Source of the DNA: Alistipes senegalensis | GTDB taxonomy: Bacteria; Bacteroidota; Bacteroidia; Bacteroidales; Rikenellaceae | Reading direction: 5' to 3' | Assembly (NCBI GenBank): GCA_023665825.1 | Contig: JAMPDE010000002.1 | Location: forward strand, 342,557-406,319 | Length of the DNA: 63,763 bases | Shown here: in pieces, positions 4,373-34,500 of the stretch | Position numbering within the stretch: the stretch's first letter is position 1 | How the letters are laid out: each line of letters starts with the position of its first letter | Translations under genes and position numbers: made by a program | Notes under the pieces: model-generated | What the model was told of the DNA's origin: nothing | Database searches by the model: none | The model's input: only the letters and a program-made list of their open reading frames with translations

Positions 4373-4381
4373 GGGGGGGGG
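4373..4381 (+). repeat. nine-G homopolymer upstream of the polysaccharide-cluster promoter
   Basis: Nine consecutive G residues end 31 bases before the -33 element of the upxY promoter. Length change by slippage could alter promoter spacing to an upstream site, but nothing here shows that such a site exists. Confidence 0.8.
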
Positions 4382-4412: not shown

Positions 4413-4444
4413 TTTGGCGGTGTAGCTGATTTTGTGTATTTTTG
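4413..4444 (+). promoter_or_regulatory. promoter of the polysaccharide cluster
   Basis: TTTG at 4413-4416 and TATTTTTG at 4437-4444 are separated by 20 bases. This is a full match to the Bacteroidota sigma-70 pattern (TTTG, 19-21 bases, TAnnTTTG). The start site would be near 4450, leaving a leader of about 200 bases before upxY. Confidence 0.8.
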
Positions 4445-4651: not shown

Positions 4652-5182
4652 ATGGCGGAAGCGGTTGAACCTTTGCGGAGTTGGTATGCCTTGCGGGTCT
4701 TTCACAACCGATCCGTCGAGGTGTCCTCGTGGGTGGAGAAATCCGGCTGGGAGTATTACGTGCCGATGAAGACCGTCGAACGGACGACGGTCGCCGGTCG
4801 TTCGACCGTCAGGCAGCCGATTATCCCGTCGTTGCTTTTCGTCCGTTCGGAAAAGGCTTACGTGGAGAACATCCGCAAGCATCCGACGGGTTCGGTGGGT
4901 GTCTACTGCATGCCCGGAACGAAAGAACCGGCGGCGATTTCCGACGAGGAGATGCGGATGTTCATCTTCGTGACGACCGTCGGCAGCCGGAATCTCGAAG
5001 CGGTCGATCCGGCTTTGGCCAAAGGCGACCGGGTGCGCATTACGGGAGGCGTGTTTCGGGGAGCCGAAGGGTATATCGCCCGCATCCGCAATGCCAAGCG
5101 GCTGATCGTCGCCATCGAGGGGGTCGCCGCCGTAGCCACGAGCTACATCCCGAAGGATTTCATGGAAAAAATAGAACCGTAA
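4652..5182 (+). CDS. UpxY-family transcription antiterminator (NusG paralogue)
   Basis: The 176-residue protein has a NusG N-terminal domain (SWYALRVFHNR near residue 10; IIPSLLFVR near residue 57) and a KOW motif near the C terminus (KGDRVRITGGVFRGAEGYIA from residue 127). In Bacteroides, such proteins are the first gene of each capsule operon and let RNA polymerase read through the long leader of their own operon. Position and size fit that role: it is the first gene after the promoter and precedes the whole polysaccharide cluster. No companion UpxZ-like gene is seen next to it. The upstream sequence is A-rich without a Shine-Dalgarno motif. Confidence 0.9.
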   Translation: MAEAVEPLRSWYALRVFHNRSVEVSSWVEKSGWEYYVPMKTVERTTVAGRSTVRQPIIPSLLFVRSEKAYVENIRKHPTGSVGVYCMPGTKEPAAISDEEMRMFIFVTTVGSRNLEAVDPALAKGDRVRITGGVFRGAEGYIARIRNAKRLIVAIEGVAAVATSYIPKDFMEKIEP

Positions 5183-5267: not shown

Positions 5268-6443
5268 ATGATAAAAATACCGTCGAATTATCTGCTCTTG
5301 GCAATCTCTTTCGTTGCGTCGTTCGGGCTTGCAAGTTGGATTCATCCGCGCATTGTGAAGATCGCCCGGATGAAAAACATCGTCGATAAACCCGATGCTC
5401 GCAAACTGCAAAACGAGCCGGTTCCGGTCTTGGGCGGAGTCGCCGTTTTCTTCGGCATGGTGGTCGGCATCGGTTTCATGAGCACCTTCGTGCCGCTGCC
5501 GTCGATGCTGGTCGTCGTAACGGCGATGATGGCGATGCTCTACACCGGAACGATGGACGATGTGCTGGATCTTTCGCCCTCGCTGCGTTTCGGAATCGAA
5601 ATCGCCGTTGTGCTCGGTCTTATATTGGGCGGTGGCGGAAATTTCCAGATCGACGATTTTCACGGTTTGTGGGGAATCGGCCGTATTCCCCAATGGGTGG
5701 CCGTGCCTCTGACGATTTTCGCGGCGGTCGGCATCGTCAATGCCATCAATCTGATCGACGGCGTGAACGGCTTGTCTTCGGGTTACTGCATCGTAGCCTG
5801 CTTCATTTTCGGGACTTTCTTTTTCTGTACCCGCAACGTGCCGATGCTCTTGCTGGCGGCGGTATCCGCCGGAGCGTTGTTCCCGTTCTTCTTCCACAAC
5901 GTTTTCGGCCGCACGTCGCGCATGTTCATCGGCGACGGGGGGACGTTGGTCATGGGAATCGTCATGGCGATTTTCGTGTGCGAAGTGTTGCAGTACGAGG
6001 GCGACCCGGTATTCGGATGCGGCAATCCGATTCCCTTTACGCTGGCGGTGCTGTGCATTCCGGTGTTCGATACGTTGCGGGTGATGTCGGTGCGGCTGCT
6101 GCGCGGCGTTTCGCCGTTCCATCCCGATAAAACGCACCTGCACCACATGTTCATCGCGCTGGGCTGTTCGCATCCGATGACGACCGTCGCGATTCTGACC
6201 CTCAATTCGGGCGTCGTGTTCTGTTGGTGGGTCGCGGCGATGCTGGGGGCTTCGTGCGAGGTGCAGTTCTTCGTTGTGGTCGGGTTGAGCGCACTGTTTA
6301 CGTTCGGGCTTTACCATATTCTGGAAAACCAGCTGCGGCGCAATACGCGCTTTTTCCGCTGGTTGCGGCGTTTCGGTTACCATACGCATTTGAGCCGGAC
6401 GCGCTTTTTCCTGATGTTCCGAAATTTCGTGGACAAACATTAG
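5268..6443 (+). CDS. WecA/MraY-family undecaprenyl-phosphate sugar-1-phosphate transferase
   Basis: This 391-residue polytopic membrane protein should start the repeat unit by moving a HexNAc-1-phosphate, probably GlcNAc-1-P, from UDP-sugar to undecaprenyl phosphate. Family marks in order are DKPDARKLQNEPVPVLGG near residue 43, the DDVLDLS loop near residue 99, NAINLIDGVNGLSSG near residue 160, MFIGDGGTLVMG near residue 222, and the cytoplasmic PDKTHLHHMFI carrying the HxHH-type histidines near residue 290. About ten hydrophobic segments are visible. It lies between upxY and the export genes. The exact sugar is not determined by sequence; GlcNAc is the family default. Confidence 0.9.
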   Translation: MIKIPSNYLLLAISFVASFGLASWIHPRIVKIARMKNIVDKPDARKLQNEPVPVLGGVAVFFGMVVGIGFMSTFVPLPSMLVVVTAMMAMLYTGTMDDVLDLSPSLRFGIEIAVVLGLILGGGGNFQIDDFHGLWGIGRIPQWVAVPLTIFAAVGIVNAINLIDGVNGLSSGYCIVACFIFGTFFFCTRNVPMLLLAAVSAGALFPFFFHNVFGRTSRMFIGDGGTLVMGIVMAIFVCEVLQYEGDPVFGCGNPIPFTLAVLCIPVFDTLRVMSVRLLRGVSPFHPDKTHLHHMFIALGCSHPMTTVAILTLNSGVVFCWWVAAMLGASCEVQFFVVVGLSALFTFGLYHILENQLRRNTRFFRWLRRFGYHTHLSRTRFFLMFRNFVDKH

Positions 6444-6466
6444 ACAAATATCAAAAACGCAATACG

Positions 6467-9106
6467 ATGTTCTTAAACACCAAACGAAAAACATGGTTGC
6501 TGCTTGCCGTGTGGTTGTTGGGCATGGCGATGCCCGCTGCGGCGCAGATGACCGACGACCAGATCGTGAACTACGTCCAGTCCGCGATGCAGTCCGGCAA
6601 AAACCAGATGCAGATTGCGCGGGAACTGATGGCGAAAGGGGTCAGCATGAACCAGCTCCAACGTTTGCAGAGCAAGTACGGAGGCGGTCAGCAGAGCTCG
6701 GGCAGTTCGGGCAACTCGACCGGCAGCGTCAGCGGGATGCTGGGCGGTTCGACTGCGTACACGACCCGGAACCGCGACAACGGCTATTCGCAGACGGACA
6801 GCCGCCTGCGCAAACGCAGCGGTTCGGTCAAGGACCGCCGTTTGGATGCCGCCGACCGCGACCGGTTGCTCGGCCTTTCCGACGAACGGAGCGCGGATGC
6901 GAAGAATTCCGACGATACGAAAGATGCGAGCCGCGAAAACGAGCGGATGGTCGTCCCGATGAACGCGAATTATGCGATGGGAAGCTACCTGCTTGCGGGT
7001 GCCGATTCTTTGGGTTCCAAACGGAAGCCCCCCGTCCCCGACAGCTTGCAGCTGTTCGGACATAACATTTTCTCCGAGCGGGAGCTGACCTTCGAGCCGA
7101 ACGAAAACCTCGCTACGCCGGAGAACTACACGCTGGGGCCCGGCGACGAGGTGATTATCGACATCTGGGGCGCGAACGAGGATTTCGTGCGGCAGGAGAT
7201 TTCGCCCGAAGGCAACATCATCGTCGAACAGCTCGGCCCCATTCATCTGAACGGGCTGACCGTGCGCGAGGCCAACGACAAGATACGGCGGATATTCGCC
7301 CGGAAATACGAGAGCATCGCGGGCGAAGAACCCGTGTCGGACATCCGGCTGTCGCTGGGCGAGCTGCGCTCCATCCAAGTCAATATCATGGGCGAGGTGA
7401 ACACGCCCGGAACCTATCGGATTTCGTCGTTCGCCTCGCTGTTCCATGCGTTGTACTATGCCGGCGGCGTCACCGACATCGGTTCGCTGCGCAACATCCG
7501 CGTGGTGCGCAACGGCAAGGAGGTCGCGACGGCCGATATCTACGAATATCTCTTCGACGGGAAGTTGTCGAACGACGTCCGGCTGAAAGAGGGCGACGTC
7601 ATCATCGTGCCTCCCTATGAAGCCCAAGTAACCGTGCAGGGCAAGGTGAAACGCCCCATGTACTACGAAGTGAAGCAGGGCGAACCGGTCGGTGCGCTGC
7701 TGAAATACGCCGGAGGATTCGCGGGCGACGCCTATACGACGGAGGTCGGCGTCATCCGCAAATCGGGGCGCGAACGGCAGTTTTTCAGCGTCGAGGACGG
7801 CCGATACGACACGTTCGGGTTGCAAAACGGCGACTCGGTGCGCGTCGGCGCGACGCTGGAACGTTTCTCGAACCGCGTGGAGGTCGAAGGGGCGGTCTAT
7901 CGTCCGGGCATGTACGAGTTGAGCGACGCGATGAACTCCGTGCGGAAATTAGTGCTGCGTGCCGACGGGCTGAAAGAGAATGCGTTTCGCAATCGGGCCC
8001 AGCTGCTGCGCGAAAAGGAGGATTTGACCAAAGAGATGCTGGCTATCGACCTGCAAGGCATCATGGCGGGAACCGTGCCTGACGTCCGGTTGCGCCGCAA
8101 CGACGTGCTGATCGTTCCGAGCCTCGACGACATGCGCGAACTCGGCGATCTGACCATCGAAGGCGAGGTGGCTTGGCCCGGCGTCTATCCGTTCGCCGAG
8201 CAGATGACGGTCGAAGACCTCATCGTGCTGGCCGGCGGTCTTTTGGAGAGCGCCTCGACGGCCAAAGTCGATGTGTCGCGCCGCGTGAAGTCGCCCAAAA
8301 GCCAGACGCCGAGCAAGGAAATCGGCCGGATATACACCTTCTCCATCAAGGACGGATTCATCGTCGACCGCGATTCGGTCTTCACGCTCGAACCGTTCGA
8401 CATCGTGGAGGTGCGCCGCAGTCCGGGCTATCAATCGCAGCGCATCGTGACGATCGAGGGCGAAGTGGCTTTCGAGGGCCGTTATGCGCTGGCGCGGAAG
8501 AACGAACGGATATCCGATCTGGTCAAACGGGCCGGCGGCGTGACGGAGGATGCCTACGTGCGGGGCGGCCGATTGATTCGCCGGATGAACAACGAGGAGC
8601 TGGCCGTGCGCGAAGCGACGATCCGTGCGGCCCGTCAGAATCGCGGTAGCGATTCGGTTTCGATGGCCCGTCTGGAAATCAGCGAGGACTATACGGTCGG
8701 CATCGACTTGGACAAGGCGCTGGCCGATCCGGGTTCGGACTACGACGTGGTGCTGCGCGAGGGCGACCGGCTGGTCGTTCCCGAATACGTCAGCACGGTG
8801 ACCATCAACGGCGAGGTGATGAACCCCAATACGGTGGTCTATCACAAGGACAAGAAACTGAAACACTACATCGCGCAGGCGGGCGGCTATGCCGACCGTG
8901 CCAAACGCAAGCGCGCCTATGTGGTCTATATGAACGGGACGATCGCGCAGGCCAAGAAAGGCATGACGCTCGAACCCGGTTGCGAAATCGTCGTGCCGAG
9001 CAAACCCAGACGCAATCCGGTCACTTTGTCGGAAATCATGGGGCTGACGACTTCGGCGGCTTCGCTGGGTACGATGGCGGCGACGATCGCATCCTTATCG
9101 AAATAA
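6467..9106 (+). CDS. polysaccharide export outer-membrane protein with SLBB repeats (Wza-like)
   Basis: The 879-residue secreted protein (signal peptide ending at AAAQ near residue 26) carries a Bacteroidota-type N-terminal helical segment, then a Poly_export domain at about residues 210-290 (LGPGDEVIIDIWG), and then a series of SLBB beta-grasp domains recognisable by repeated NTPGTYRI-like and GEVxxPG segments to residue 840. Such proteins form the outer-membrane exit for capsule or exopolysaccharide. I chose the ATG at 6467 because it begins an obvious signal peptide; the same frame is open further upstream but overlaps the preceding gene. The next gene is its usual Wzz partner. Confidence 0.92.
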   Translation: MFLNTKRKTWLLLAVWLLGMAMPAAAQMTDDQIVNYVQSAMQSGKNQMQIARELMAKGVSMNQLQRLQSKYGGGQQSSGSSGNSTGSVSGMLGGSTAYTTRNRDNGYSQTDSRLRKRSGSVKDRRLDAADRDRLLGLSDERSADAKNSDDTKDASRENERMVVPMNANYAMGSYLLAGADSLGSKRKPPVPDSLQLFGHNIFSERELTFEPNENLATPENYTLGPGDEVIIDIWGANEDFVRQEISPEGNIIVEQLGPIHLNGLTVREANDKIRRIFARKYESIAGEEPVSDIRLSLGELRSIQVNIMGEVNTPGTYRISSFASLFHALYYAGGVTDIGSLRNIRVVRNGKEVATADIYEYLFDGKLSNDVRLKEGDVIIVPPYEAQVTVQGKVKRPMYYEVKQGEPVGALLKYAGGFAGDAYTTEVGVIRKSGRERQFFSVEDGRYDTFGLQNGDSVRVGATLERFSNRVEVEGAVYRPGMYELSDAMNSVRKLVLRADGLKENAFRNRAQLLREKEDLTKEMLAIDLQGIMAGTVPDVRLRRNDVLIVPSLDDMRELGDLTIEGEVAWPGVYPFAEQMTVEDLIVLAGGLLESASTAKVDVSRRVKSPKSQTPSKEIGRIYTFSIKDGFIVDRDSVFTLEPFDIVEVRRSPGYQSQRIVTIEGEVAFEGRYALARKNERISDLVKRAGGVTEDAYVRGGRLIRRMNNEELAVREATIRAARQNRGSDSVSMARLEISEDYTVGIDLDKALADPGSDYDVVLREGDRLVVPEYVSTVTINGEVMNPNTVVYHKDKKLKHYIAQAGGYADRAKRKRAYVVYMNGTIAQAKKGMTLEPGCEIVVPSKPRRNPVTLSEIMGLTTSAASLGTMAATIASLSK

Positions 9107-9116
9107 CGACGGAACG

Positions 9117-10226
9117 ATGAAAGAGGAATTCTCGGTGAATCAGACGGAACGGGAGCCGCAGGAGGAGGAAATCGATCTCTTGGAGCTGGCCCGCAAATTG
9201 TGGAACGCGCGGAAGCGCATCGCCAAGTGGGCAGCCATCGGTGCGGCGGTCGGCATCGTGGTGGCGTTCAGCATCCCGAAAGAGTACAGCGCGACGGTGA
9301 AACTCGCGCCCGAATTGTCCAGCAGCAAAAAATCGTTGGGCGGATTGAGTGATTTGGCGTCGTTGGCCGGCGTCAATGTCGGAGGCGCCATGTCCGAAGA
9401 CGCCATGAGCCCGACGCTCTATCCCGATATCGTCGAGTCGATTCCGTTCATGGTGGCGCTGTTCGACGTGCCGGTGACGGACCGAAAGGGCGACCTGCAA
9501 ACGACGGTGTACGATTACGTGCAGGAACACACGCGCCGGACTTGGTGGAGCGCAGCGATTATGGCGCCGTTCAAGTTCATCGGGTGGACGCTGTCGCTGT
9601 TCAAGGAAAAAGAGGACAAGGAAAAACGGCCCGTCGTGGATCCGTTCCGGCTGACGCGGAAGGAGCACGAAGCCGTCAAAAAACTCTCCGAGCGGGTCGT
9701 CTGCACGGTGGACAAGAAGACTTCCGTCATCTCGCTGACCGTGACGATGCAGGATCCGTTGATCGCCGCGACGCTGACCGATACGGTGATGGTCAATTTG
9801 CAGAACCACATCACCGATTACCGGACGAACAAGGCGCGCCACGACCTCGATTTCACGCAGAAACTCTATGACGAATCCCAAGCCGCCTACTATGCGGCGC
9901 AGGCGCGCTACGCCCGCTACATGGACGCGAACCAGAACGTCGTGCTGCGGTCGGTGCGCACCGAGCAGGAACGCTTGCAGAACGAAATGAACCTGAATTA
10001 CGAGGTCTACAACCAGACGGCCCAGCAGCTGCAACTGGCTAAAGCGAAAGTGCAGGAATCGACGCCTGTTTATGTCGTCCTGCAACCGGCGACGGTGCCG
10101 CTGCGTGCCGAAAAACCGGCGAAAATGTTGATTATCATCGGATTCGCTTTCCTGTTCGGCGCGGCGGTTTCGGCGTGGGTGCTGTTCGGCGAAGAGTTGG
10201 CGGCGCAATTCAAAAAAGAGCAGTGA
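9117..10226 (+). CDS. Wzz-type polysaccharide chain-length determinant
   Basis: The 369-residue inner-membrane protein has the classical two-helix layout: an N-terminal membrane segment ([13 protein letters not shown] at about residues 40-52) after a short cytoplasmic LLELARKLW stretch, a long periplasmic coiled region, and a C-terminal membrane segment ([17 protein letters not shown]). It is expected to set chain length in Wzy-dependent polymerisation. No tyrosine-kinase domain is fused, unlike Wzc. It lies 10 bases after the export gene and 1 base before rfbA, so it is in the same operon. Confidence 0.9.
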
Positions 10227-10227
10227 C

Positions 10228-11133
10228 ATGAAGGGCATCGTATTGGCCGGAGGTTCCGGTATGCGGTTGTATCCTATTACGAAGGGCGTTTCCAAACAGC
10301 TCCTGCCCGTATTCGACAAACCGATGATCTATTACCCGTTGTCGGTGCTGATGCTGGCGGGGATTCGCGAGATTCTGATTATTTCGACGCCGCAGGATTT
10401 GCCCGGATTCAAGCGTCTGTTCGGCGACGGGTCGAATTTCGGTCTGCGTTTGGAGTATGCCGAGCAGCCCTCGCCCGACGGACTGGCGCAGGCGTTCCTC
10501 ATCGGCGAAAAGTTCATCGGCGACGATTCGGCCTGTCTCGTGCTGGGCGACAACATCTTTCACGGGCCCGGATTCTCGGCCATGTTGCGCGACGCCGTCC
10601 GCACGGTCGAAGAGGAGCACAAGGCGGCCGTGTTCGGCTACTGGGTTTCCGATCCCGAACGGTACGGCGTCGCGGAGTTCGACAAGGCCGGAAATTGCCT
10701 CTCCATCGAGGAAAAACCGGCGAATCCCAAATCCAACTATGCGGTGGTCGGGCTCTACTTTTATCCCAACAAGGTGGTCGAGGTGGCCAAGTCGATCCGG
10801 CCGTCGGCGCGCGGCGAACTGGAAATCACGTCGGTCAATCAACGCTTTTTGGACGACAAGGAGCTGAAAGTGTTTACGTTGGGACGGGGGTTCGCGTGGT
10901 TGGATACCGGTACCCACGATTCGCTGTCGGAGGCTTCGACCTACATCGAAGTCATTGAGAAGCGTCAGGGGCTGAAAGTGGCCTGCTTGGAGGGCATCGC
11001 TTACCGCAAGGGCTGGATTACGGCCGACAAGATGCGTGAACTGGCGGCCCCGATGCTGAAAAATCCCTACGGACAATACCTGCTGAAAGTCGTCGACGAA
11101 ATCGAACGGACGGGGCAGGCGAATTTGGAGTAG
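10228..11133 (+). CDS. rfbA: glucose-1-phosphate thymidylyltransferase
   Basis: This 301-residue enzyme makes dTDP-glucose from glucose-1-phosphate and dTTP, the first step to dTDP-L-rhamnose. It begins with the nucleotidyltransferase signature [15 protein letters not shown]; the fourth residue of the GGSGT motif is Met instead of the common Thr. The [16 protein letters not shown] and [10 protein letters not shown] blocks are strongly RmlA-like. It is followed by rfbC after 4 bases, and together rfbA, C, D and B form the complete pathway. Confidence 0.97.
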
Positions 11134-11137
11134 TCGT

Positions 11138-11707
11138 ATGAAAGTGATTCCTACTGCCATCGAGGGCGTCGTCATTATCGAACCCGACTTGTTCGGGGAC
11201 GAACGGGGCTATTTTTTCGAGAGTTTTTCGGAACGGCGTTTCTGCGAGCAGGTTCGCTCCGTGCGTTTCGTGCAGGACAACGAATCCAAATCCTCGTACG
11301 GCGTTTTGCGCGGACTGCATTTCCAGAAACCGCCCCATGCCCAATCCAAATTGGTGCGCGTCATCGCGGGGCGGGTGCTCGATGTCGCGGTGGACATTCG
11401 TCGGGGTTCGCCGACCTTCGGACAGCACGTCGCCGTCGAACTGACGGGGGAGAACCACCGGCAGTTTTTCATTCCGCGCGGATTCGCGCACGGATTCTCG
11501 GTGCTGTCGGACGAAGCGATATTCCAATACAAGTGCGATAATTATTACGCCCCGCAGTCCGAAGGTTCCGTCGCTTGGAACGACCCCGATTTGGCGATCG
11601 ACTGGCGGATTCCGGCCGACAAGGTGCTGCTGTCAGAAAAAGACCGGCACCACCCGCGCCTGAACGAAGCCGAATGGTTGTTCGATTATAGCGAATCTCT
11701 ATATTGA
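11138..11707 (+). CDS. rfbC: dTDP-4-dehydrorhamnose 3,5-epimerase
   Basis: The 189-residue cupin-fold enzyme epimerises C3 and C5 of the 4-keto sugar in dTDP-L-rhamnose synthesis. The catalytic histidine is in RGLHFQKPP near residue 65, the DVAVDIRRGSPTFG strand follows, and the active-site tyrosine region is QYKCDNYYAP. The length matches the family. It is placed between rfbA and rfbD in one transcription unit with almost no spacing. Confidence 0.97.
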   Translation: MKVIPTAIEGVVIIEPDLFGDERGYFFESFSERRFCEQVRSVRFVQDNESKSSYGVLRGLHFQKPPHAQSKLVRVIAGRVLDVAVDIRRGSPTFGQHVAVELTGENHRQFFIPRGFAHGFSVLSDEAIFQYKCDNYYAPQSEGSVAWNDPDLAIDWRIPADKVLLSEKDRHHPRLNEAEWLFDYSESLY

Positions 11708-11709
11708 AT

Positions 11710-12582
11710 ATGAATATCTTGGTAACGGGCGCGAACGGGCAGCTCGGAAACGAAATGCGGCTCGTGGCGCGCGAAAGTTCCGACCGGTATATCTTCACCG
11801 ACGTCGTCGAACTCGATATTACCGATGCGGCGGCCGTCGAAAAGACGGTGGCGGAAAACGATATTCGCCTGATCGTCAACTGTGCCGCCTATACGAATGT
11901 CGACAAGGCCGAAGACGACCGCGAGCAGGCCGAACGGCTCAATGTCCGGGCGGTCGAAAACCTCGCTCGGGCGGTCAAGAAGCAGGACGGCTGGCTGTTC
12001 CACATCTCGACCGACTATGTGTTCGGCCGGGAACCGTACAATACGCCTTGTCGGGAAGAGCAGCAGGGAACGCCCACCGGCGTTTACGGCGAAACGAAAC
12101 TGCGCGGTGAGCAGGTGATTCGGGAAAGCGGCTGTCATCACGTCATCATCCGCACGGCATGGCTCTACTCCGAATTCGGCCGGAATTTTCTGAAAACAAT
12201 GCTCGAATTGACGGCGACCCGGCCGCAATTGCAGGTGGTTTTCGACCAGACCGGAACGCCGACCTACGCGCTCGACCTCGCCGAAACGATTTTCGATATC
12301 GTCGAACATCGCAAGTACGAAGGGCACGAGGGGATTTACCATTACTCGAACGAAGGGGTCTGCTCGTGGTACGATTTCACGAAGGCAATCGCAAAGTTCG
12401 CAGGGCACACGGAGTGCGACATCCGGCCTTGCCACTCCGACGAATTTCCCTCGAAAGTGCGGCGCCCGGCCTATTCCGTATTGGACAAGACGAAAATCAA
12501 GGAGACGTTCGGCATTCGGATTCCCTACTGGACCGATTCGCTCGAAAAGTGCCTCGAAAATCTGAAACGAAATGGATTATAA
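11710..12582 (+). CDS. rfbD: dTDP-4-dehydrorhamnose reductase
   Basis: This 290-residue extended short-chain dehydrogenase performs the last step, reducing the 4-keto group to give dTDP-L-rhamnose. The NAD(P)-binding TGANGQLGNE is at residue 7 and the catalytic YGETK (YxxxK) near residue 128, with a STDYVFG motif before it. I take the ATG at 11710, two bases after the rfbC stop; a TTG two codons earlier is also in frame. Its 3' end overlaps rfbB by 11 bases. Confidence 0.96.
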   Translation: MNILVTGANGQLGNEMRLVARESSDRYIFTDVVELDITDAAAVEKTVAENDIRLIVNCAAYTNVDKAEDDREQAERLNVRAVENLARAVKKQDGWLFHISTDYVFGREPYNTPCREEQQGTPTGVYGETKLRGEQVIRESGCHHVIIRTAWLYSEFGRNFLKTMLELTATRPQLQVVFDQTGTPTYALDLAETIFDIVEHRKYEGHEGIYHYSNEGVCSWYDFTKAIAKFAGHTECDIRPCHSDEFPSKVRRPAYSVLDKTKIKETFGIRIPYWTDSLEKCLENLKRNGL

Positions 12583-13714
12583 ACGCAATGTTTTAATCAC
12601 GGGCGGGGCCGGATTCATCGGCTCGCATGTCGTGCGGTTGTTCGTTCGTAAATATCCCGATTATCGGATCGTCAACCTCGACAAACTGACCTATGCCGGC
12701 AATCTGGCCAATCTGAAAGATGTCGAAGCGGAACCCAACTACACCTTTGTAAAAGCCGATATCTGCGATTTTCCAAAAATGCAGGAAATTCTCGCGCAGT
12801 ATCGGATTGACGGTATCATCCACCTCGCGGCCGAGAGCCATGTCGACCGCAGCATCAAAGATCCGTTCACTTTCGCGCGCACCAATGTCATGGGCACGCT
12901 GACGCTGTTGCAGGCGGCCAAACTCTACTGGGAAAGTCTGCCGGAACGCTATGAAGGCAAACGGTTCTACCATATTTCGACCGACGAAGTGTACGGTGCA
13001 TTGGAGCTGACTCACCCCGAAGGGGTCGAACCGCCGTTCACAACGACCGCTTCGTCGAGCGAGCATCATTCGGCCTACGGCAAGGAGTTTTTCTACGAAG
13101 ATACGAAGTACAATCCGCATTCGCCGTATAGTGCAAGCAAGGCGAGCAGCGACCACTTCGTGCGGGCGTTCCACGATACTTACGGTATGCCGACCATCGT
13201 CACGAATTGCTCGAACAATTACGGGCCTTATCAGTTTCCCGAGAAACTGATTCCGTTGTTCATCAACAATATCCGTCATCGCAAGCCGCTGCCCGTGTAC
13301 GGCAAAGGCGAGAACGTGCGCGACTGGCTTTACGTCGAGGACCATGCGCGGGCCATCGATCTGATTTTCCACAAGGGCAAGGTTGCCGAGACCTACAACA
13401 TCGGCGGATTCAACGAGTGGAAAAATATCGACCTCATCAAGGTGGTCATCAAGACCGTCGACCGGTTGTTGGGGAACCCGGAGGGCCATTCGCTCGACCT
13501 CATTACTTACGTCACCGACCGTGCCGGCCACGATTTGCGGTATGCTATCGATTCATCGAAATTGCAGCGGGAGCTCGGTTGGGAGCCGTCGTTGCAGTTC
13601 GAGGAGGGCATCGAAAAGACCGTAGCGTGGTATCTTGAAAATCAAGCATGGACAGACAACATCACCAGCGGCGAATACGAAAAGTATTACGAGGAGATGT
13701 ACGGAAACAGATAA
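12572..13714 (+). CDS. rfbB: dTDP-glucose 4,6-dehydratase
   Basis: This 380-residue enzyme makes dTDP-4-keto-6-deoxyglucose, the second step of the rhamnose pathway. The Rossmann motif TGGAGFIGSHV is at residues 9-19, STDEVYG near residue 133, and the catalytic YSASK near residue 187. It overlaps the end of rfbD, giving the order A-C-D-B. It is the last GC-rich gene before the AT-rich variable part of the cluster. Confidence 0.97.
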   Translation: MDYKRNVLITGGAGFIGSHVVRLFVRKYPDYRIVNLDKLTYAGNLANLKDVEAEPNYTFVKADICDFPKMQEILAQYRIDGIIHLAAESHVDRSIKDPFTFARTNVMGTLTLLQAAKLYWESLPERYEGKRFYHISTDEVYGALELTHPEGVEPPFTTTASSSEHHSAYGKEFFYEDTKYNPHSPYSASKASSDHFVRAFHDTYGMPTIVTNCSNNYGPYQFPEKLIPLFINNIRHRKPLPVYGKGENVRDWLYVEDHARAIDLIFHKGKVAETYNIGGFNEWKNIDLIKVVIKTVDRLLGNPEGHSLDLITYVTDRAGHDLRYAIDSSKLQRELGWEPSLQFEEGIEKTVAWYLENQAWTDNITSGEYEKYYEEMYGNR

Positions 13715-13724
13715 AACGTTTCGG

Positions 13725-15167
13725 ATGAGTTCGTTGAAGACCAATGTCCTGTTGAACCTGATCAATACGATTACCGGAATTATTTTTCCGGTAATCACTT
13801 TTCCTTATGCTGCCCGGATCCTTTTGCCGGATGGCATAGGTGCGGTCAATTTTCTCTCTTCGATCGTCAACTACCTTGTCTTGTTGACCGGATTGGGAAT
13901 TCCGATGTATGCGGTGCGCGAAGTGGCGAAGTATCGGGATGACGTGGTATTGAGGAATAAAATCACGGTGGAAATTACGCTGTTGAGTGTAATTCTTTGC
14001 GGTGCGGGATATGTAATGGTGTTTTTGTTGGCCCGATATGTTCCGCAAATACATGCACAGGCCGGATTGTTTTATATTCTGAGCCTGACTATCTTGTTTA
14101 CGAGCATCGGCGTGCAGTGGTTTTATCAGGCCATAGAGGATTTTCTGTTCATCACCGTCCGGGCTGTGGTCATTCGGACGCTTGCGGTTGTTTCGCTGTT
14201 TGTCTTTGTAAAGCGTAAGGAAGATTTGTTGATTTATGGGGCAGTCGTCGTCGGGTCGACGGTGGGCAATAATCTGATCAACTTCATACATCTGCGCAAA
14301 TACATCGAAGTTGCGAAAATCAAATGGCGGGAATTGCAGGTTGCACGACATCTGAAACCGGCGATACATATTTTTATTCTCAATCTGATCATCAGTATTT
14401 ATTTTCAGCTGAATGCGGTCATGTTGGGTTTCATGCAAAATGAAGAAGCGGTGGGCTTTTATACGGCAGGGTATAAGATATCCTATGTCGTGTTGTCGGT
14501 AATTACTTCGTTGGGTGTCGTGTTGCTGCCCCGATGCGCGAATTTGGTAAAAACCGGTAAAATGGCCGAATTTGCGGCTGTGGGGCAGAAGTCCTACCGG
14601 TTGGTCATTGCTACGGCGTTGCCTTGTACGATCGGCCTTTTGCTGCTGGCTGAGCCGATTACCGAGATTTTCTGTGGAACCGCTTTTCTGCCATCCGTTT
14701 CGGTGCTTTATTGGACTGCGCCGGTCATTGTTTTCAGCAGTATTACCAATGTGTTTGGCAACCAATTGCTGTATCCTCAAAATCAAGAGAACATTATTAT
14801 ATGGGGTGCGATTGGGGGTGCAATTATGAATGTCGGACTTAATTTGTTGCTTATTCCGAGATATTCCTATACGGGTGCTGCCATCGCTACGTTCTGGACG
14901 GAATTGGTGATATTGATCATGCAACTGTGGGCTGGCAGGAAATTCATACCGTTCCCGATTTTTCATCGGGATAATCTGAAATATGTTTGGGCTACCTTAA
15001 TAATGGTGATAGCGATTCTCTTAGTAACACGAAATATAGTGTCGCCCGTTTTTATGATTTTGGCGGCTGTCGGTGTCGGTATGCCGGTCTATGGATTGGC
15101 ACTGCTGTGGCAAAAGGATGATTTGCTTGATGAGATACTTATATATGTAAAATTGAAACGGAATTAA
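13725..15167 (+). CDS. wzx: Wzx-type repeat-unit flippase
   Basis: A 480-residue protein of the MOP/polysaccharide-transport family with about 12-14 hydrophobic helices. The N terminus NLINTITGIIFPVITFPYA is a family hallmark. It should flip the lipid-linked repeat unit across the inner membrane for Wzy polymerisation. I use the ATG at 13725, 10 bases after rfbB; the same frame is open further upstream into rfbB but starts inside that gene. Base composition falls from here onward compared with the rfb genes. Confidence 0.93.
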   Translation: MSSLKTNVLLNLINTITGIIFPVITFPYAARILLPDGIGAVNFLSSIVNYLVLLTGLGIPMYAVREVAKYRDDVVLRNKITVEITLLSVILCGAGYVMVFLLARYVPQIHAQAGLFYILSLTILFTSIGVQWFYQAIEDFLFITVRAVVIRTLAVVSLFVFVKRKEDLLIYGAVVVGSTVGNNLINFIHLRKYIEVAKIKWRELQVARHLKPAIHIFILNLIISIYFQLNAVMLGFMQNEEAVGFYTAGYKISYVVLSVITSLGVVLLPRCANLVKTGKMAEFAAVGQKSYRLVIATALPCTIGLLLLAEPITEIFCGTAFLPSVSVLYWTAPVIVFSSITNVFGNQLLYPQNQENIIIWGAIGGAIMNVGLNLLLIPRYSYTGAAIATFWTELVILIMQLWAGRKFIPFPIFHRDNLKYVWATLIMVIAILLVTRNIVSPVFMILAAVGVGMPVYGLALLWQKDDLLDEILIYVKLKRN

Positions 15168-15182
15168 ATTGAATAAGGATAG

Positions 15183-15419
15183 ATGTTTTTAGTTACAGTA
15201 CAAGGGATTTGACGCTTCAATTATCTTCGATTCATTTATGAAAAGACGCATAGCTCGGTATTTGAAATGATTGTGGTGGATAATACTTCTGCTGACGATT
15301 CGGTCGAATCCATCAAAAAGCAATTTTTGTATATGGATGTGTGGCAAACAATATATCCGAGTTTAACGTTGAACAATTTGTTTTATAAAAAGGTCTTCAA
15401 AATACAAAATAGATGTTGA
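15183..15419 (+). pseudogene. remnant of a family 2 glycosyltransferase
   Basis: Read from the ATG at 15183, the frame begins FLVTVQGI, meets an in-frame TGA at 15210-15212, and continues as a GT2-like N terminus: a YLRFIYEK segment, then FEMIVVDNTSADDSVESIKK, the classic strand-VDNxSxDxSV motif of GT-A transferases. It then degrades and stops at 15417-15419. About 78 codons remain of an expected 250-300, and the catalytic half is missing. The next gene overlaps its end. This is most likely a transferase lost by deletion plus a nonsense mutation. Confidence 0.75.
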
Positions 15420-16492
15420 TTTATTTTGTTATTTATACATACTTGTTATGTATGGGCTTGTTAGAGCTGTTAAGTAGAAGGAAAGGCCCTATTCATGCAT
15501 CTTTGTATGGCTTATTCGCTGTCTTTATTTTCTTTATGGCGGGCTTTCGAGGAATGGGGAATGATTATGACGGGTATCGGGAGATTTTTGAATCAATACG
15601 AAGTCTTCAAGCGTATGAATTATTTGATCCCAGCAAAGTATACGTCGAACCTATCTACGGTCTACTAAATATTGCAATGTCTGAATTGCCATATCAAGCT
15701 ATTTTAGTGGTCATGGCATTTCTGAATATTGTGATTCTATTTCCTTTTATTTATAAATATTCTCCATATCCGTTTGTTTCGCTTTTACTATTTGCTGGAA
15801 TGTTCATGTATTCAAACATGATGGGGTTGATACGGCAATCATTAGCTGTATCAATTTGTCTTTGGGCAATTGTTAATGTTGAAAAGAGGCGATTTTGGTG
15901 GTTGGTGGGTATTGCGACATTGATTCATTACTCGGCAATTATTGTCGTTGTCGTTAAATTGATAAAAAATAATTTCTTATCTTTAAAAAGATATATGTTA
16001 TTGGGTAGCGGTGCGATAGTTTCAAATTTGTTTTTTTATGGTATATTTATTACGATATCTGCATTGTTGCCAGCGGTAATTGCTTGGAAGTTGAGTATTT
16101 ATATATCAGAAGAGGCTGGTGACCATTTTGGATTGATGAATAGTGCCGTGCTATTAAGGCTTGTTACCTTTATATTAGCATACCGTTATCGGGATAAGAT
16201 TAAATCTTGTTTCCCTGAATATGGAGCATATTTTACGAATATCTATTTTATGGCTCTTCTTTTATATGTCGGATGCGGATTCCTCCCTCAAATGGCTTCT
16301 CGGGGTGCAGCATATTTTCATTTTTTTGAAATACTAGTCGTCCCCATGCTCATATATGTCGCTAATAAGGCCAATAGGTGCTGTATTTTTAGCTTCTATG
16401 CTTTATGTTCTTTTTGGCGTCATTACGAATTGGTGACAATGTACCAGGAAGCCTATGTTCCGTATAAAAATGTGTTATTAAGTTTTTTATGA
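15413..16492 (+). CDS. wzy: Wzy-like polysaccharide polymerase (EpsG/O-antigen polymerase type)
   Basis: The 359-residue protein has around ten hydrophobic helices and a large soluble loop, with the sequence GFRGMGNDYDGYREIFE near residues 44-60, typical of EpsG/Wzy-like polymerases (the GxxxDYxxY pattern). It is the only candidate polymerase in a cluster that has Wzx and Wzz, so by context it joins repeat units in the periplasm. The sequence is AT-rich like its neighbours. It overlaps the preceding GT2 remnant and the next gene by four bases. Confidence 0.82.
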   Translation: MLIYFVIYTYLLCMGLLELLSRRKGPIHASLYGLFAVFIFFMAGFRGMGNDYDGYREIFESIRSLQAYELFDPSKVYVEPIYGLLNIAMSELPYQAILVVMAFLNIVILFPFIYKYSPYPFVSLLLFAGMFMYSNMMGLIRQSLAVSICLWAIVNVEKRRFWWLVGIATLIHYSAIIVVVVKLIKNNFLSLKRYMLLGSGAIVSNLFFYGIFITISALLPAVIAWKLSIYISEEAGDHFGLMNSAVLLRLVTFILAYRYRDKIKSCFPEYGAYFTNIYFMALLLYVGCGFLPQMASRGAAYFHFFEILVVPMLIYVANKANRCCIFSFYALCSFWRHYELVTMYQEAYVPYKNVLLSFL

Positions 16493-17244
16493 TGGATATT
16501 CCTAAATTGATTCATTTTTGTTGGCTGAGCGGTGAGGCATATCCCGAAAAAATTGCTCGTTGTATCGAATCTTGGCATGAAAAGATGCCGGATTATGAAA
16601 TTATGTTATGGGATAGGGCTCGTTTCGACCGAGAGGTGAAAAATGAATTTGCCATACAAGCCGTAAATAAACGAAAATGGGCGTTTGCTGCGGATTACAT
16701 TAGACTTTTTGCCTTATATACGTATGGGGGAGTTTATTTGGATTCGGATGTTAAAGTTTACAAGCCTTTTGATGATTTTCTATCGAATGCTTTCTTTTCA
16801 GGTATAGAATATTTTAAGCCGACGAATTATGTAGCCATTGAGGCGGCTGTGATGGGAAGTATTCCTAACCATCCGTTTGTTGGCAAATGTTTGGAAGAGT
16901 ATGAATCATGTAAGTTCATAAAAGAAGACGGATCTTTGGATATGCTTCCGATAACCGTTCGCATGGCGGATATTGCTAAAATGGATTGGGGGTTCGAGTT
17001 TGTGGCCAAAGAACAACACTTGAAAGATAATATTGTTTTGTATCCGCCGGTTACTTTCACGAATCCGTCGGGCATCTTTTCTCAAAAAGAAACTTATGCA
17101 CTTCATCTTTGCAACGGAAGTTGGGTGGAAAACAAGCCTCGTAATCTTCTACGCGTCATTAATTTCGTTAAACGGTATTATAACAAACCATTTACTGCAC
17201 TTGTTAATTTACTAACTAAATTATTATCGCTGATTCGGAGATGA
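16489..17244 (+). CDS. glycosyltransferase with DXD sugar-binding motif (GT32-like)
   Basis: This 251-residue cytoplasmic transferase starts IPKLIHFCWLSGEAYPEK and contains FAADYIRLFALYTYGGVYLD followed by SDVKVYKP, which together form the Gly_transf_sug pattern with the DXD metal/sugar-nucleotide motif near residue 84. The family includes capsular transferases that add hexoses or HexNAc. The donor and acceptor cannot be deduced. The ATG at 16489 overlaps the wzy stop, implying translational coupling. No membrane segment is present. Confidence 0.88.
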   Translation: MMDIPKLIHFCWLSGEAYPEKIARCIESWHEKMPDYEIMLWDRARFDREVKNEFAIQAVNKRKWAFAADYIRLFALYTYGGVYLDSDVKVYKPFDDFLSNAFFSGIEYFKPTNYVAIEAAVMGSIPNHPFVGKCLEEYESCKFIKEDGSLDMLPITVRMADIAKMDWGFEFVAKEQHLKDNIVLYPPVTFTNPSGIFSQKETYALHLCNGSWVENKPRNLLRVINFVKRYYNKPFTALVNLLTKLLSLIRR

Positions 17245-17289: not shown

Positions 17290-18374
17290 ATGATGGAAAT
17301 GAGTCTGAATAAAGAATCATACGGTTCTCGTATGGTCGAGCTGGATCTATTGAAACTCGTTGCAATTTTTTTTGTGTTATGGGGGCATGTTTTGTTACTT
17401 CCATCCGACCATCCTTATGAAACGAATCCGATATATCTTTGGATATGCTCTTTCCACATGCCGCTTTTCATGTGTCTTTCGGGATTTTTCGCTTCAAACA
17501 TATTTGATAAATCATTTGGAAATCTGTTTAAGCAACGGTTTTCTCAATTACTTTTACCTTTTTTTGCTTGGGTCTTTTTAATTTATGGGATAAAAACAGT
17601 CTTTATTTTGATTTTGCGCGGCGAGAATTATCCGGATCTGGGTAGTGATTTGCTTTATTCCATTTGGTTCCTGAAAAGTGCATTCGTTTGTGCGATGCTC
17701 GGGTATTTAGGATTCAGCCATAAAAGAAATAAAATAGGATGGATATTGTTTTCGCTTGCTTGTAGTCAATTGGTGATTTACTGGGATGTGTTTATTATGT
17801 ATCCTTGTTTTGTGTTTGGGATTTTGATTCGCCGATATTTTTTCCGAATTTTGGAACATTGGAAGATTATTTTGTGTTTTGTTGGGACTGTTTTTCTGGT
17901 TGCATCTATCTACATTAGTGTGTGTAATCAGAGTGTATGGATGTTCAATCAGAATATAAAGAAAATGCTGATCAATGATGCGCTTGATCGCTCGAAATTT
18001 TGCAATTTGATGGGGGGGGGATTTTGAAATATTTATTATTGAGATATATGAGAATGTTTGTAGGTTTATTGGGCGCTTTAAGTTATATCCTTGTATTCTC
18101 TTCGGCCGCGGATAGAATTAAAAAAAGTACATTATGCAATATACTTGCAAAATATGGGCAACTTACTTTGGGGATTTACGTGGTTCAGACGTTATTGCTT
18201 GAAACAATGGGTCCTTATTTTTTTCGATTGTATGGTTTGGGTTATATTTTATATAATTTTGTCGTTGTACCTATTCTTGCCTTATGTTTTTTGAGTTTGA
18301 GTATATGTGTTGTAGTCTGTATCAGGCGAAATAAAATTTGTTCCTATTTGTTACTTGGCTTTAGATCGAAATAA
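17290..18374 (+). CDS. acyltransferase family 3, frame interrupted at a G9 tract (probable phase-OFF allele)
   Basis: The 5' frame (17290-18027) encodes 245 residues of an integral-membrane acyltransferase (Acyl_transf_3, OafA-like): LLKLVAIFFVLWGHVLLL with the conserved helix-1 histidine, then SFHMPLFMCLSGFFASN, then further helices. It stops just after a run of nine G (18012-18020). The 3' part continues in another frame from the tract to 18374 with the missing C-terminal helices. Adding one G, or removing two, restores a single frame of 361 residues, a normal size for this family. Such enzymes O-acetylate surface glycans. This looks like slipped-strand phase variation, but a true pseudogene or a homopolymer sequencing error cannot be excluded. 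The start is a tandem ATG ATG. Confidence 0.85.
18012..18020 (+). repeat. G9 homopolymer tract within the acyltransferase gene
   Basis: Nine G residues follow ATTTGAT. Translation in the upstream frame gives MGGGF-stop; with ten G it would read MGGGILKYLLLRYMRMF and stay open. The local sequence is otherwise AT-rich, which makes the run stand out. Confidence 0.9.
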
Positions 18375-31597: not shown

Positions 31598-34500
31598 ATG
31601 AAGCGACTGATTTTCTGTCTGGTGTGGGCTGTCATAGTGGGTGCGTTGCGCGGGTTCTGCGCAACCGACCCTCCGCTGTGCCTGTTCAGCAACTACACGA
31701 CGCTGGACGGGATGGTGCACGACCGCATCGCCGATATCTACACCGATTCGCGCGGTTTCGTGTGGCTCTGCACGTGGTACGGCGTGAGTTGTTTCGACGG
31801 ATATACCTTTCGGAATTTCAGTACGATGCCCGCCGATTCGTCGCCCTTGTCGCATCACCGGTTCATCTCCGTGAGCGAAGACACGAACGGCCATCTGTGG
31901 TTCATGACCTACAACCTGCACATCTACCGCTTCAATCGTTTCACCGAGCAGTTCGAGGATGTCGTGCAGCTCGTCGGCGGCATCGACCCGAAGCATTACC
32001 GCACGACCGGCCGTCTGCACGACCGGAGCGGCGGAACGTGGGTCTCCATCGCCGGCATGGGAGCCGTTCGCTTCGTCGACACGCCCGATGCCGCTCCCGT
32101 GCAGGTCGATGCAGTATTCGACGAGCCCGTATTGGGCGGTTCCGTGCGTACCATGTACGTCGACGACCGGGACAATGCGTGGATCGCCGCGTCCGACGGA
32201 CAGTTGAATTTCGTCGCTTCGAGTGCGCTGTGGCAGCGGGCCCGTACGGTGTGCAGGACGGACGAACCGATTTTCGGATTCGTTGCCGACGACACCGGCG
32301 TTTACGGTGTCGCTCCTCACGCGGTCGTGCGGGCGGCCCTGCATGGCGGCGAAGCGGTCGTGATTCCCGCTTCCGGTGCTCCTTTGACGGCTGTTACGAC
32401 CGACAGCATCGGTCGAGGCGTCTATACGGGCAATGCGGCGGGCGAATTGTTCCGCGTCGAGGGCGACCGGCTCGTCCGGCTTGCGCCTGCCGGACGTCGG
32501 CCGAAGCGCATTCGGGCACTGAACAGCGATTCGCACGGCATCGTGTGGGTGACTACCCCCGATGCGGGCATCACTCGCTACGATCCGGCATCGAATGATT
32601 ACAAACATTTCGAGCAGCGGCCCTATACCGTCTCGTACAATACCGATACGCTGACGCGTTTCGTCGAAAAGCAGGGTCGGCTGTGGATCAAGATGAACAA
32701 ATACGGATTCGGGTATTACGACCGTGAATCCGACGAGGTGCGGCCGTTTTACAACGACCCCGCGCGTCCCGACTGCCGGATGACCAATGCCGTAGTGCGT
32801 TTCGACGTGCAGGACAACGTGCTGTGGCTCTCGACCTACCACGAGCGGGGGTTGCGGAAAGCGGTGTTGCTCGACCAGCCTGCCGATATTTTCACGCTCG
32901 ATTCCGAAAAACAATCCGGGCTGGCGGGCGAAGTGCGTGCGTTGATGAACGACCGGCAGGGCCGTCTGTGGGTCGGTACGCGGGACGGAGAATTGTATTG
33001 TTACGATGCTTCGATGCGCTTGGTCTACCGTCATCCGACGACGCAGCGCGGCGGGCTCGGCATGATTTACGCGCTGAAAGAGGATGCGCACGGCAATATC
33101 TGGGTCGGAACCAAAGGGCGGGGGCTCTACCGGTTGAAACCCGACGGGAACGGGTACGCCGTGACCGCTTTCCGCCATGCGGCGTCCGACATCTACTCGA
33201 TCAGCAGCAATGACATCTATTGCATCGAAGAGGATCGTCGCGGCCGTATCTGGATCGCTACCTACGGCGGCGGCATCGACTTGCTGGAATCGGCCGGTTC
33301 GGACCGTTTCCTGCATGCGGGCAACCGCATGCGCCACTATCCGCTCGACGAAGCCGGACGGGTGCGCTGGCTGCTGTGCGACCGGGAGAACCGGATGCTC
33401 GCCGCGACGGTGGACGGATTGCTGGTCTTCGACCCCGAAGACGAAGTACAGAAGATGCGTTTCCGGCTGGTGCAGAACATTCCCGGCAATGCGGCTTCGC
33501 TGGGGAACAACGACATCATACATCTTTATAAGGACGCTTCCGGGCGTATTTGGCTGGCGACCTATGGCGGCGGCGTTCATCTGATTACCGGCTACGATGC
33601 GCAGGGCATCCCGCAATTCCGCAATTTCGACCGCGAAAACGGACTTTCCAACAACATCTGCATGGCCTTGACCTCCGACCGGCAGGGCGATTTGTGGGTT
33701 TCGACCCTCCACTGCGTTTCGCGTTTCGACCCCGCGTCCGAACGTTTCACCAATTATCCGCTCTACGACGATACGCATGCGGCGATTTTCAGCGAGGCGA
33801 CCGCCGTGTCGCTGCCGGACGGCAAGGTGCTTTTCGGTAGCGGACGCAACATTTACCGCTTCGACCCGGACAAGATGCGAGCCCTGCGGGTCGATTACAA
33901 CCTGCATTTCACCGGTTTGGACGTCCGTAACCGGGCGATCGTACCCGGTGACCGTTCGCCGCTCGCGAAAAGCATCTCCGAAGCGTCGGAAATCGTCCTG
34001 CCGCATGATTTCTCGAACATGCGAATCGGTTTCGCCGCCTTGAATCAGGCGGTGCAGCATACGGTGGGTTACCTCTACAAATTGGAGGGCTATGACCGCG
34101 ACTGGGCTTTCGCCGGAACCTCCAACAGTGCTTTCTATTCGAGTTTGCCTGTCGGCGATTACCGTTTCCGGGTGAAAGCCTCGACCGACAGCTCGGACGC
34201 CGGAGGCGAGGAGATCGGCATCGACGTGCGAGTTCTCCCCCCCCCTTGGTTTACATGGTGGGCTAAATCGTTGTATGTCATCGCTTTCTTCGGTATCTGC
34301 TTCGTTGTTTATCGGGTGGCGAGTACGATGATCCGTATCCGCAGGGAGGTGAGCGTCGAGCAGAATATGACCGATTTGAAGTTGCGCTTCTTTACGAATA
34401 TCTCCCACGAACTCCGCACGCCTCTGACGCTTATTCTGGGCGGTATCGAGGATGTCATCAAGCATGACCGGCTCTCCTCGCGGGGCAATATCAGTCTGGC

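What the first reader, a model, noticed from the sequence alone, without database searches (positions are those of the whole stretch)
17290..18374. Probable phase-variable O-acyltransferase switched by a G9 tract
A membrane acyltransferase gene in the polysaccharide cluster is split into two frames exactly at a run of nine G. The upstream frame stops seven bases past the run; the downstream frame holds the missing C-terminal helices. G10 (or G7) would restore a normal 361-residue protein. Both halves are otherwise intact, which argues against old decay. Slipped-strand switching of glycan O-acetylation is known in Campylobacter, Neisseria and Haemophilus; in Bacteroidota the usual capsule switch is promoter inversion, so a homopolymer switch inside a modifying enzyme would be an additional mechanism.
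Basis: partly seen in the sequence, partly recalled or inferred. Interest (0 to 1): 0.85.

Follow-up and report, generated by a model that had tools for sequence, protein, structure and literature searches.

The report
Genus-wide nine-G gene switches
A sugar-coat modifying gene of a gut bacterium is cut in two at a run of nine Gs, and similar runs recur in signal peptides, promoters and regulators across its genus, which suggests a large, little-noticed set of on/off gene switches in this group.

Summary
A G9 run (window 18012-18020) lies where an acyltransferase-3 gene changes frame; both pieces match one Pfam domain in order and align collinearly to one intact homologue in a related species. 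That homologue has its own in-frame G9 elsewhere.

The run is not isolated. This genome has 33 G9 runs, 2 G8 and none longer; 180 genomes of the genus total G8 1729, G9 4732, G10 352. By a simple gene caller 20 of the 33 lie in frame at exactly nine, which argues against a sequencing cap.

Comparison across species supports phase variation. A secreted-protein gene has a G8-G10 tract near its 5' end in 17 of 24 homologous loci: in the signal peptide, at the -33 position or in the -33/-7 spacer. Its frame is split in six species and intact in others, yet its mature part is under purifying selection. Between two close species 2 of 3 shared tracts differ by one base, and one splits a response regulator. 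A second G9 lies upstream of this polysaccharide cluster's promoter.

Switching within one population could not be tested, and this gene has no close orthologue. Known mechanism; an apparently undescribed, large instance in Bacteroidales.

The parts
17290..18027 (+). Upstream piece of the acyltransferase-3 gene (245 codons, ends in a stop just after the run)
   Evidence: PF01757 positions 3-240, 82.8 bits over cut-off 31; nearest NCBIfam model NolL 64.5 bits, far below its cut-off 425
18012..18020 (+). G9 tract at the frame change
18018..18374 (+). Downstream piece of the same gene in another frame
   Evidence: PF01757 positions 245-324, 23.0 bits, below cut-off 31; collinear with the intact homologue in G174
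4373..4381 (+). Second G9 tract, intergenic, upstream of the promoter of the polysaccharide cluster; nine long in the 5 species in which the site aligned
4413..4444 (+). Bacteroidales-type promoter-like site: TTTG (-33) at 4413-4416 and TAnnTTTG (-7) at 4437-4444
   Evidence: consensus from a passage of PMC7366714
4652..5182 (+). UpxY-family transcription antiterminator, first gene of the cluster
   Evidence: NF033644, 135.5 bits over cut-off 100; Pfam NusG
5268..17244 (+). Polysaccharide cluster up to the acyltransferase: Glycos_transf_4, export protein (Poly_export/SLBB), Wzz, nucleotidyltransferase, dTDP-sugar epimerase, RmlD-type reductase, dehydratase, flippase, EpsG-type protein, glycosyltransferase
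34237..34245 (-). Third G9 tract of the window (C9 on the + strand), in frame inside a hybrid two-component regulator at 31598-35965

Best explanation
The gene encodes a membrane acyltransferase-3 enzyme of a UpxY-led surface-polysaccharide cluster. Its G9 tract is a slipped-strand contingency locus: tract-length changes at replication move the downstream part in and out of frame, so cells of one population make or do not make the enzyme. The assembly shows the split state. The tract belongs to a genus-wide class of poly-G tracts that act in two ways. In coding sequence they change the frame, in several genes inside or just after a signal peptide. Near promoters they sit in the -33/-7 spacer, at the -33 position, or about 50-57 bases upstream of the -7 box. 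Long runs slip much faster than short ones, and gain and loss balance near nine, which would explain the sharp length class. SHOWN: the split, one domain across it, the length class, length and frame differences between species, purifying selection on other genes with split frames, the spacing of tracts to promoter-like boxes. INFERRED: slippage as the cause, reversibility, the balance at nine, sugar O-acylation, and any effect on the glycan.
For: Split and single domain. Homologue in G174 has an in-frame G9 at another place and a further G9 about 80 bases upstream of its start. Length class: own genome 2/33/0 for G8/G9/longer; genus 1729/4732/352 for G8/G9/G10, G9 above G8 in 148 of 180 genomes (sums). 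Secreted-protein gene: tract in 17 of 24 homologous loci against 53 of 6100 random windows; split frames in G000, G171, G013, G132, G015 and G167, intact with a tract in G018 and G139; dN/dS 0.09-0.21 in 6 split-split pairs (pairs share species). Close species G013/G015: 2 of 3 shared tracts differ, 9 to 8, against 1 of 68 G5-6 runs (Fisher 0.0036) and 8 of 101 A/T runs of 5-8 (0.024). A LytTR response regulator is whole in one and split in the other, its downstream part 97% identical with dN 0.015 and dS 0.24. Signal peptides cut off from a long frame at 6 of 96 runs of 7 or more against 22 of 1867 G5-6 runs (Fisher 0.0018; the six are three gene families). Promoter spacing: of 27 TAnnTTTG boxes within 160 bases downstream of 114 tracts, 22 lie at 0-9, 20-29 or 50-59 bases. 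Tract-bearing ORFs include five with TonB plug domains, three hybrid two-component systems, a DNA methylase and a fimbrillin-like protein.
Against: No reads or strains: reversible switching is not shown at any locus. The acyltransferase has no close orthologue, so selection on it cannot be tested. Most coding tracts keep their frame. Slippage with smoothly changing rates does not obviously give so sharp a class; G8 exceeds G9 in 23 of 180 genomes and equals it in 9, and G005 shows a ladder, not a peak. Having any TAnnTTTG within 120 bases is about as common for random intergenic points as for intergenic tracts (40% against 11 of 25). The spacing bins were chosen after seeing the data; most of the 0-9 and 20-29 cases come from one gene family fetched for that gene, and five of the ten 50-59 cases are one orthologous site. 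One lipoprotein split in both species has dN 0.42 and dS 0.79, which fits weak constraint. In the G013/G015 comparison two further tracts are present in only one of the two species.
Confidence: 0.7

Rival explanations
1. The split is a sequencing or assembly error in the homopolymer; the gene is intact in the organism.
For: The genome is a draft of 29 contigs, 88% complete. Long homopolymers are error-prone on some platforms (PMC5320596, passage). A sharp peak at one length is what a cap would also give.
Against: 20 of 33 own tracts lie in frame at exactly nine (my count). The LytTR gene is in frame at nine in one species and split at eight in another. Runs of ten and eleven are assembled in the genus. 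Site 4373 is nine long in five species. Only 15 of 392 other genomes of the order have ten or more G9, but their base composition and G8 counts were not controlled. A single error at this one tract is not excluded.
Confidence: 0.14
2. A recent, fixed loss-of-function frameshift: the gene is a young pseudogene in a hypermutable run.
For: One genome only; no close orthologue to test selection; tracts differ between close species.
Against: No other stop in either piece. Another gene of the same class stays under purifying selection while split in several species.
Confidence: 0.1
3. Programmed slippage of RNA polymerase or ribosome on the G run makes some full-length product from the split gene without any DNA change.
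For: The secreted-protein gene is found split in six species with a conserved mature part.
Against: Tract length differs between close species, and other orthologues carry the tract in the promoter instead, which frame slippage does not explain.
Confidence: 0.06

Closest known systems
Poly-G/C contingency loci of Campylobacter jejuni
   Same: Poly-G in reading frames of surface-modifying enzymes, with a few intergenic; strain NCTC11168 has 29 loci with tracts of seven or more (PMC4965091: abstract in the listing, passages).
   Different: There in AT-rich genomes; here in a 57% GC Bacteroidales genome with a very sharp length class and, in the richest genome of the genus, 173 exact G9 runs, several in TonB-dependent receptors and hybrid two-component systems.
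Neisseria poly-G/C phase variation, including the fetA and porA promoter spacers
   Same: Frame switching, and tracts between promoter boxes that change their spacing (PMC5320596, passages). Modal poly-G length is 9 in gonococcus and meningococcus and 10 in N. lactamica (PMC5953494, passages).
   Different: Different promoter type (TAnnTTTG here); averages of 15-19 poly-G tracts per genome in those three species, against 30 or more exact G9 in 46 of 180 genomes here.
Invertible promoters of Bacteroides capsule loci
   Same: Phase variation of UpxY-regulated polysaccharide loci in Bacteroidales (PMC12632263, passages).
   Different: There DNA inversion by a recombinase; here homopolymers upstream of the promoter and inside a modifying enzyme. 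One 10-base inverted repeat (4249-4258 and 4518-4527) does flank this promoter; by eye it is not perfect in the G167 and G171 alignments.

Membership tests
Simple-sequence-repeat phase variation (contingency locus) | Homopolymer long enough to be hypermutable, in a reading frame or promoter | tested here: met
   G9 at 18012-18020; a cut-off of seven or more G/C is used for Campylobacter (PMC6321876, passages)
Simple-sequence-repeat phase variation (contingency locus) | Gene otherwise intact on both sides of the tract | tested here: met
Simple-sequence-repeat phase variation (contingency locus) | Tract length differs between related genomes and changes frame or promoter spacing | tested here: inconclusive
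   Met for the LytTR regulator and the secreted-protein gene and for a promoter tract, G162 against G141; not testable for the acyltransferase itself
Simple-sequence-repeat phase variation (contingency locus) | Gene kept by selection although split in the sampled state | tested here: inconclusive
   Met for the secreted-protein gene and the regulator; one split lipoprotein shows weak constraint; no orthologue to test the acyltransferase
Simple-sequence-repeat phase variation (contingency locus) | Reversible high-frequency switching within one population | not testable with these tools
   no reads or strains at hand
Acyltransferase-3 (PF01757) | Domain match over the curated cut-off along the protein | tested here: met
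   Upstream piece 82.8 bits over 31; downstream piece 23.0 bits, under 31 alone but continuing the profile; intact homologue 86.9 bits
Acyltransferase-3 (PF01757) | Transfers an acyl group to a glycan | not testable with these tools
   inferred from the domain and the polysaccharide cluster
UpxY-type capsule locus | First gene a UpxY antiterminator | tested here: met
UpxY-type capsule locus | Invertible promoter | tested here: inconclusive
   one 10-base inverted pair, 259 bases apart, flanks the promoter; not seen as a perfect pair in the G167 and G171 alignments; inversion itself not testable

The most novel reading that the evidence does not exclude
A genus of gut Bacteroidales (probably Alistipes) runs one of the largest poly-G phase-variation sets known, 30 to 170 tracts in its richer species, with tract length held very tightly at nine. 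Each gene's frame relative to nine would then fix whether it is on or off by default, and the same gene can move its switch between promoter and signal peptide over evolution. The tightness at nine would point to a length-setting process beyond ordinary slippage.
Probability: 0.35. Interest if true: 0.85.

Novelty: new variant of a known kind. Interest (0 to 1): 0.74.

Why it matters
In the papers I saw, phase variation in gut Bacteroidales is DNA inversion; the main text of a 2025 review of two model Bacteroides species does not contain the word 'slipped' (PMC12632263, passages). If this reading is right, a common gut genus switches receptors, regulators, perhaps a DNA methylase, and polysaccharide genes by homopolymer slippage. 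Consensus assemblies would then report some of its genes in an arbitrary state and may have them annotated as broken. The exact-nine class also gives a natural test of what sets homopolymer length. A tract census in existing deep metagenomes would test it directly.

Tried and rejected
Considered and set aside: a sequencing cap at nine (most own tracts are in frame at nine; longer runs are assembled). The order-level comparison points the same way but does not control for base composition. A G9 insertion element: among the 30 best OPT-transporter orthologues fetched (171 of 180 genomes had one), 3 have G9 in a variable linker, in two codon phases, and the rest have ordinary codons; by eye no shared flank beyond an A/T-rich 3' side among the 35 own-genome tracts of eight or more. 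That intergenic tracts in general lie near promoters: not so (11 of 25 against 40% of random points); only the spacing is special. I also corrected the box count from 26 to 27, weakened the order-level control, and moved the odds of the main reading from 0.72 to 0.70 and of the error rival from 0.12 to 0.14 for that reason. Rfam at gathering threshold found only a tRNA in the window. No PDB chain matched the upstream piece by sequence at E 0.1.

Methods with limits: a first codon-based frame caller was too weak and was replaced. The second calls no gene at the AT-rich acyltransferase and picked the other strand at L083; I re-classed L069, L071 and L083 by hand. Final count of the 33 own G9 tracts: 20 in one open frame (15 with G on the coding strand, 5 with C), 3 at splits (acyltransferase, L071, and L069 as probable), 8 intergenic, 2 unclear (L065, L079). 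One search was given 25 of the 28 loci; one (G004) gave no match at 1e-4, and two of the seven rows without a tract (L230, L233) are the same gene. The signal-peptide criterion was set after I had seen the first cases; its six hits are three gene families. Random windows and G4-6 runs served as controls.

Literature: searches that required all of Alistipes + homopolymer + phase variation, Alistipes + homopolymeric tract + phase variation, poly-G + Alistipes + frameshift, and Alistipes + slipped-strand returned no paper. Alistipes + phase variation listed 17 papers, of which I read passages of one. Nothing outside that library was searched.

Full report
THE OBSERVATION. The window has a run of nine G at 18012-18020. 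An ORF from 17290 runs into it and stops at 18025-18027; another frame is open from the run to 18374. Pfam Acyl_transf_3 matches the first piece at profile positions 3-240 and the second at 245-324, the second below the family cut-off on its own. A related genome, G174, has a single 338-aa ORF to which both pieces align in order at about 35% identity (its residues 8-193 and 221-331). So this is one gene split at the run. The G174 homologue itself contains a G9, in frame and at a different place, and another G9 lies about 80 bases upstream of its start. No close DNA match to the gene was found in the other 179 genomes of the genus (one 30-base match apart); 12 of 180, own included, have a protein match to the first piece.

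THE RUN BELONGS TO A CLASS. The own genome (2.27 Mb, 29 contigs) holds 33 runs of exactly nine G or C, two of eight and none longer. In 464 kb of it, G/C runs number 266, 28, 1, 0, 6, 0 for lengths 5 to 10; A/T runs fall smoothly. Two other genomes of the genus, sampled at 400 kb each, show the same gap and peak (G013: G6 13, G7 0, G8 0, G9 13, G10 1, G11 1; G152: G6 26, G7 2, G8 2, G9 10, G10 1). A third, G005, shows a ladder without a peak (G6 66, G7 8, G8 5, G9 5). Over all 180 genomes exact counts are G8 1729, G9 4732, G10 352 (summed from the tables). G9 exceeds G8 in 148, equals it in 9 and is below it in 23. 46 genomes have 30 or more G9. In 392 other genomes of the order 15 have ten or more exact G9 and the highest count is 28; four from other genera of the same family have 5, 5, 0 and 1 (my reading of the table). 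G8 was not counted there and base composition was not controlled.

WHERE THE TRACTS SIT. Of the 33 own tracts I count 20 in ORFs in one frame (15 with G on the coding strand, 5 with C), 3 at frame splits (this gene, L071, and L069 as probable), 8 intergenic and 2 unclear. The caller is simple, and starts near a tract depend on its choice. Tract-bearing ORFs include five with TonB plug domains (L061, L063, L074, L075, L083), three hybrid two-component systems (L070, L082, window 31598-35965), a DNA methylase, a fimbrillin-like protein, a sulfatase and an S41 peptidase. Of 8 intergenic among 33, against about 11% non-coding, the binomial chance is 0.024. The OPT transporter has a G9 in a variable linker in 3 of the 30 best orthologues, in two codon phases, so tracts arise repeatedly at permissive sites.

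EVIDENCE FOR SWITCHING. A secreted-protein gene (L071; no Pfam or NCBIfam match) has its G9 inside the signal peptide. In G000, G171, G013 and G132 (G9) and G015 (G8) the signal-peptide frame and the mature frame differ. In G018 and G139 they agree with G9. G167 has an interrupted run and is split; G140, G142, G144 and G019 are intact without a long run there. The mature part is under purifying selection: dN/dS 0.09-0.21 for six split-split pairs, 0.10-0.15 for two split-intact pairs and 0.09-0.12 for three intact pairs. Upstream, 17 of 24 homologous loci have a G8-G10 tract between -320 and +30 of the mature start, against 53 of 6100 random 350-base windows. The seven without are G167, for which only 80 bases upstream were at hand, and six rows of more distant or paralogous loci, two of which are the same gene. 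Where the signal peptide lacks a tract, the promoter often has one: 20-22 bases before the -7 box, that is at the -33 position (G142, G140, G144, G019, G168), or 5-8 bases before it, in the spacer (G141 G9, G162 G8, G163, G166, G175). G015 and G139 have both. G162 and G141 differ in tract length and in distance to the box.

Between the close species G013 and G015, three tracts could be aligned in both: one is 9/9 and two are 9/8. One further G013 tract and one G015 tract have no tract at the aligned place in the other species, one pair of G9 tracts aligns on one side only, and the rest found no aligned partner. Over 75,739 aligned columns 43 single-base gaps occur; 1 of 68 G5-6 runs and 8 of 101 A/T runs of 5-8 changed. 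One of the changed tracts lies between the receiver and LytTR domains of a response regulator that is whole in G013 and split in G015; its downstream part is 97% identical, with dN 0.015 and dS 0.24. A scan for a signal peptide cut off from a long downstream frame found 6 of 96 runs of seven or more, against 22 of 1867 G5-6 runs, 83 of 9121 G4 runs and 18 of 1245 A/T runs (Fisher 0.0018). Its criterion was set after the first cases were seen, and the six are three gene families, one of them a hybrid two-component gene next to a G10 in G013. Against the reading: the lipoprotein split in both species is only 49% identical with dN 0.42 and dS 0.79, which fits weak constraint or diversification.

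THE CLUSTER. The acyltransferase lies in a polysaccharide cluster that begins with a UpxY antiterminator at 4652-5182, followed by Glycos_transf_4, export, Wzz and nucleotidyltransferase genes, dTDP-sugar genes, a flippase, an EpsG-type protein and glycosyltransferases. A second G9 at 4373-4381 stands 55 bases upstream of the -7 box (4437-4444; TTTG at 4413) before this first gene. It is nine long in the five species where the site aligned (G000, G167, G171, G018, G172), with flanks about 74-83% identical; in G172 only 47 bases aligned, and G174 and G022 gave no alignment there. One 10-base inverted repeat flanks this promoter; by eye it is imperfect in G167 and G171. Over 114 distinct tracts in all fetched loci, 27 TAnnTTTG boxes fall within 160 bases downstream on the G strand, 22 of them at 0-9, 20-29 or 50-59 bases. 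Counting each gene family or orthologous site once, these classes have about two, two and six independent members. The mere presence of a box within 120 bases is not enriched.

HOW IT LIKELY WORKS. Slipped-strand mispairing changes tract length; in coding tracts this moves the frame, in promoter tracts it changes spacing or the upstream element. Nine would be where gains and losses balance; a modal poly-G length of nine is also reported for gonococcus and meningococcus (PMC5953494, passages). The sharpness here, and its variation among species, remain unexplained. The comparison is strong for the class and circumstantial for this gene, because it rests on one assembly. O-acetylation is the ordinary reading of an AT3 enzyme in such a cluster (recalled); the nearest NCBIfam model (NolL) is far under its cut-off.

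WHAT IS KNOWN. Poly-G contingency loci in Campylobacter and Neisseria, and promoter-spacer tracts such as fetA and porA, are the closest cases (passages of PMC4965091, PMC6321876, PMC5953494 and PMC5320596). A survey of 99 prokaryotic genomes found poly-C and poly-G runs of more than two bases generally under-represented (PMC2831843, passages). For Bacteroidales the passages I saw speak of inversions (PMC12632263 and PMC11868660). The four searches joining Alistipes with homopolymer or slippage terms returned nothing. I therefore file this as a new variant of a known kind.

Noticed in passing
L071:2504-3163 and homologues L207-L226: Secreted-protein family without a Pfam match whose poly-G tract sits in the signal peptide, at the -33 position or in the -33/-7 spacer, depending on species.
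   Followed up: yes
L121:7869-8618 (G013) and L246 near 12021 (G015): LytTR response regulator with G9 between its two domains, whole in one species and split by G8 in a close relative.
   Followed up: yes
L064:2762-3550: DNA N6/N4-methylase with an in-frame G9; a possible switch of methylation and so of many genes.
   Followed up: no
L069 near 3065: WG-repeat protein gene probably split at a G9 in the own genome, with a kinase-like stretch after the tract (by eye); its upstream frame is uncertain.
   Followed up: partly
genomes G005, G031, G056, G146: Genomes in which G8 is as common as or commoner than G9; the preferred length may differ between species.
   Followed up: partly
order-level genomes G214, G271, G394, G414, G559: A few genomes of other families with 19-28 exact G9 runs; possible independent cases.
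   Followed up: no
L062 linker near 3020, with L152 and L164: G9 in the same variable linker of an OPT transporter in three species, in two codon phases.
   Followed up: partly
L208 (G167), upstream of the mature start: An interrupted G run in a degraded-looking signal peptide, perhaps a locked state.
   Followed up: no
window 4249-4258 and 4518-4527: A perfect 10-base inverted repeat, 259 bases apart, on either side of the cluster's promoter and G9; could be chance or part of the upstream terminator.
   Followed up: partly
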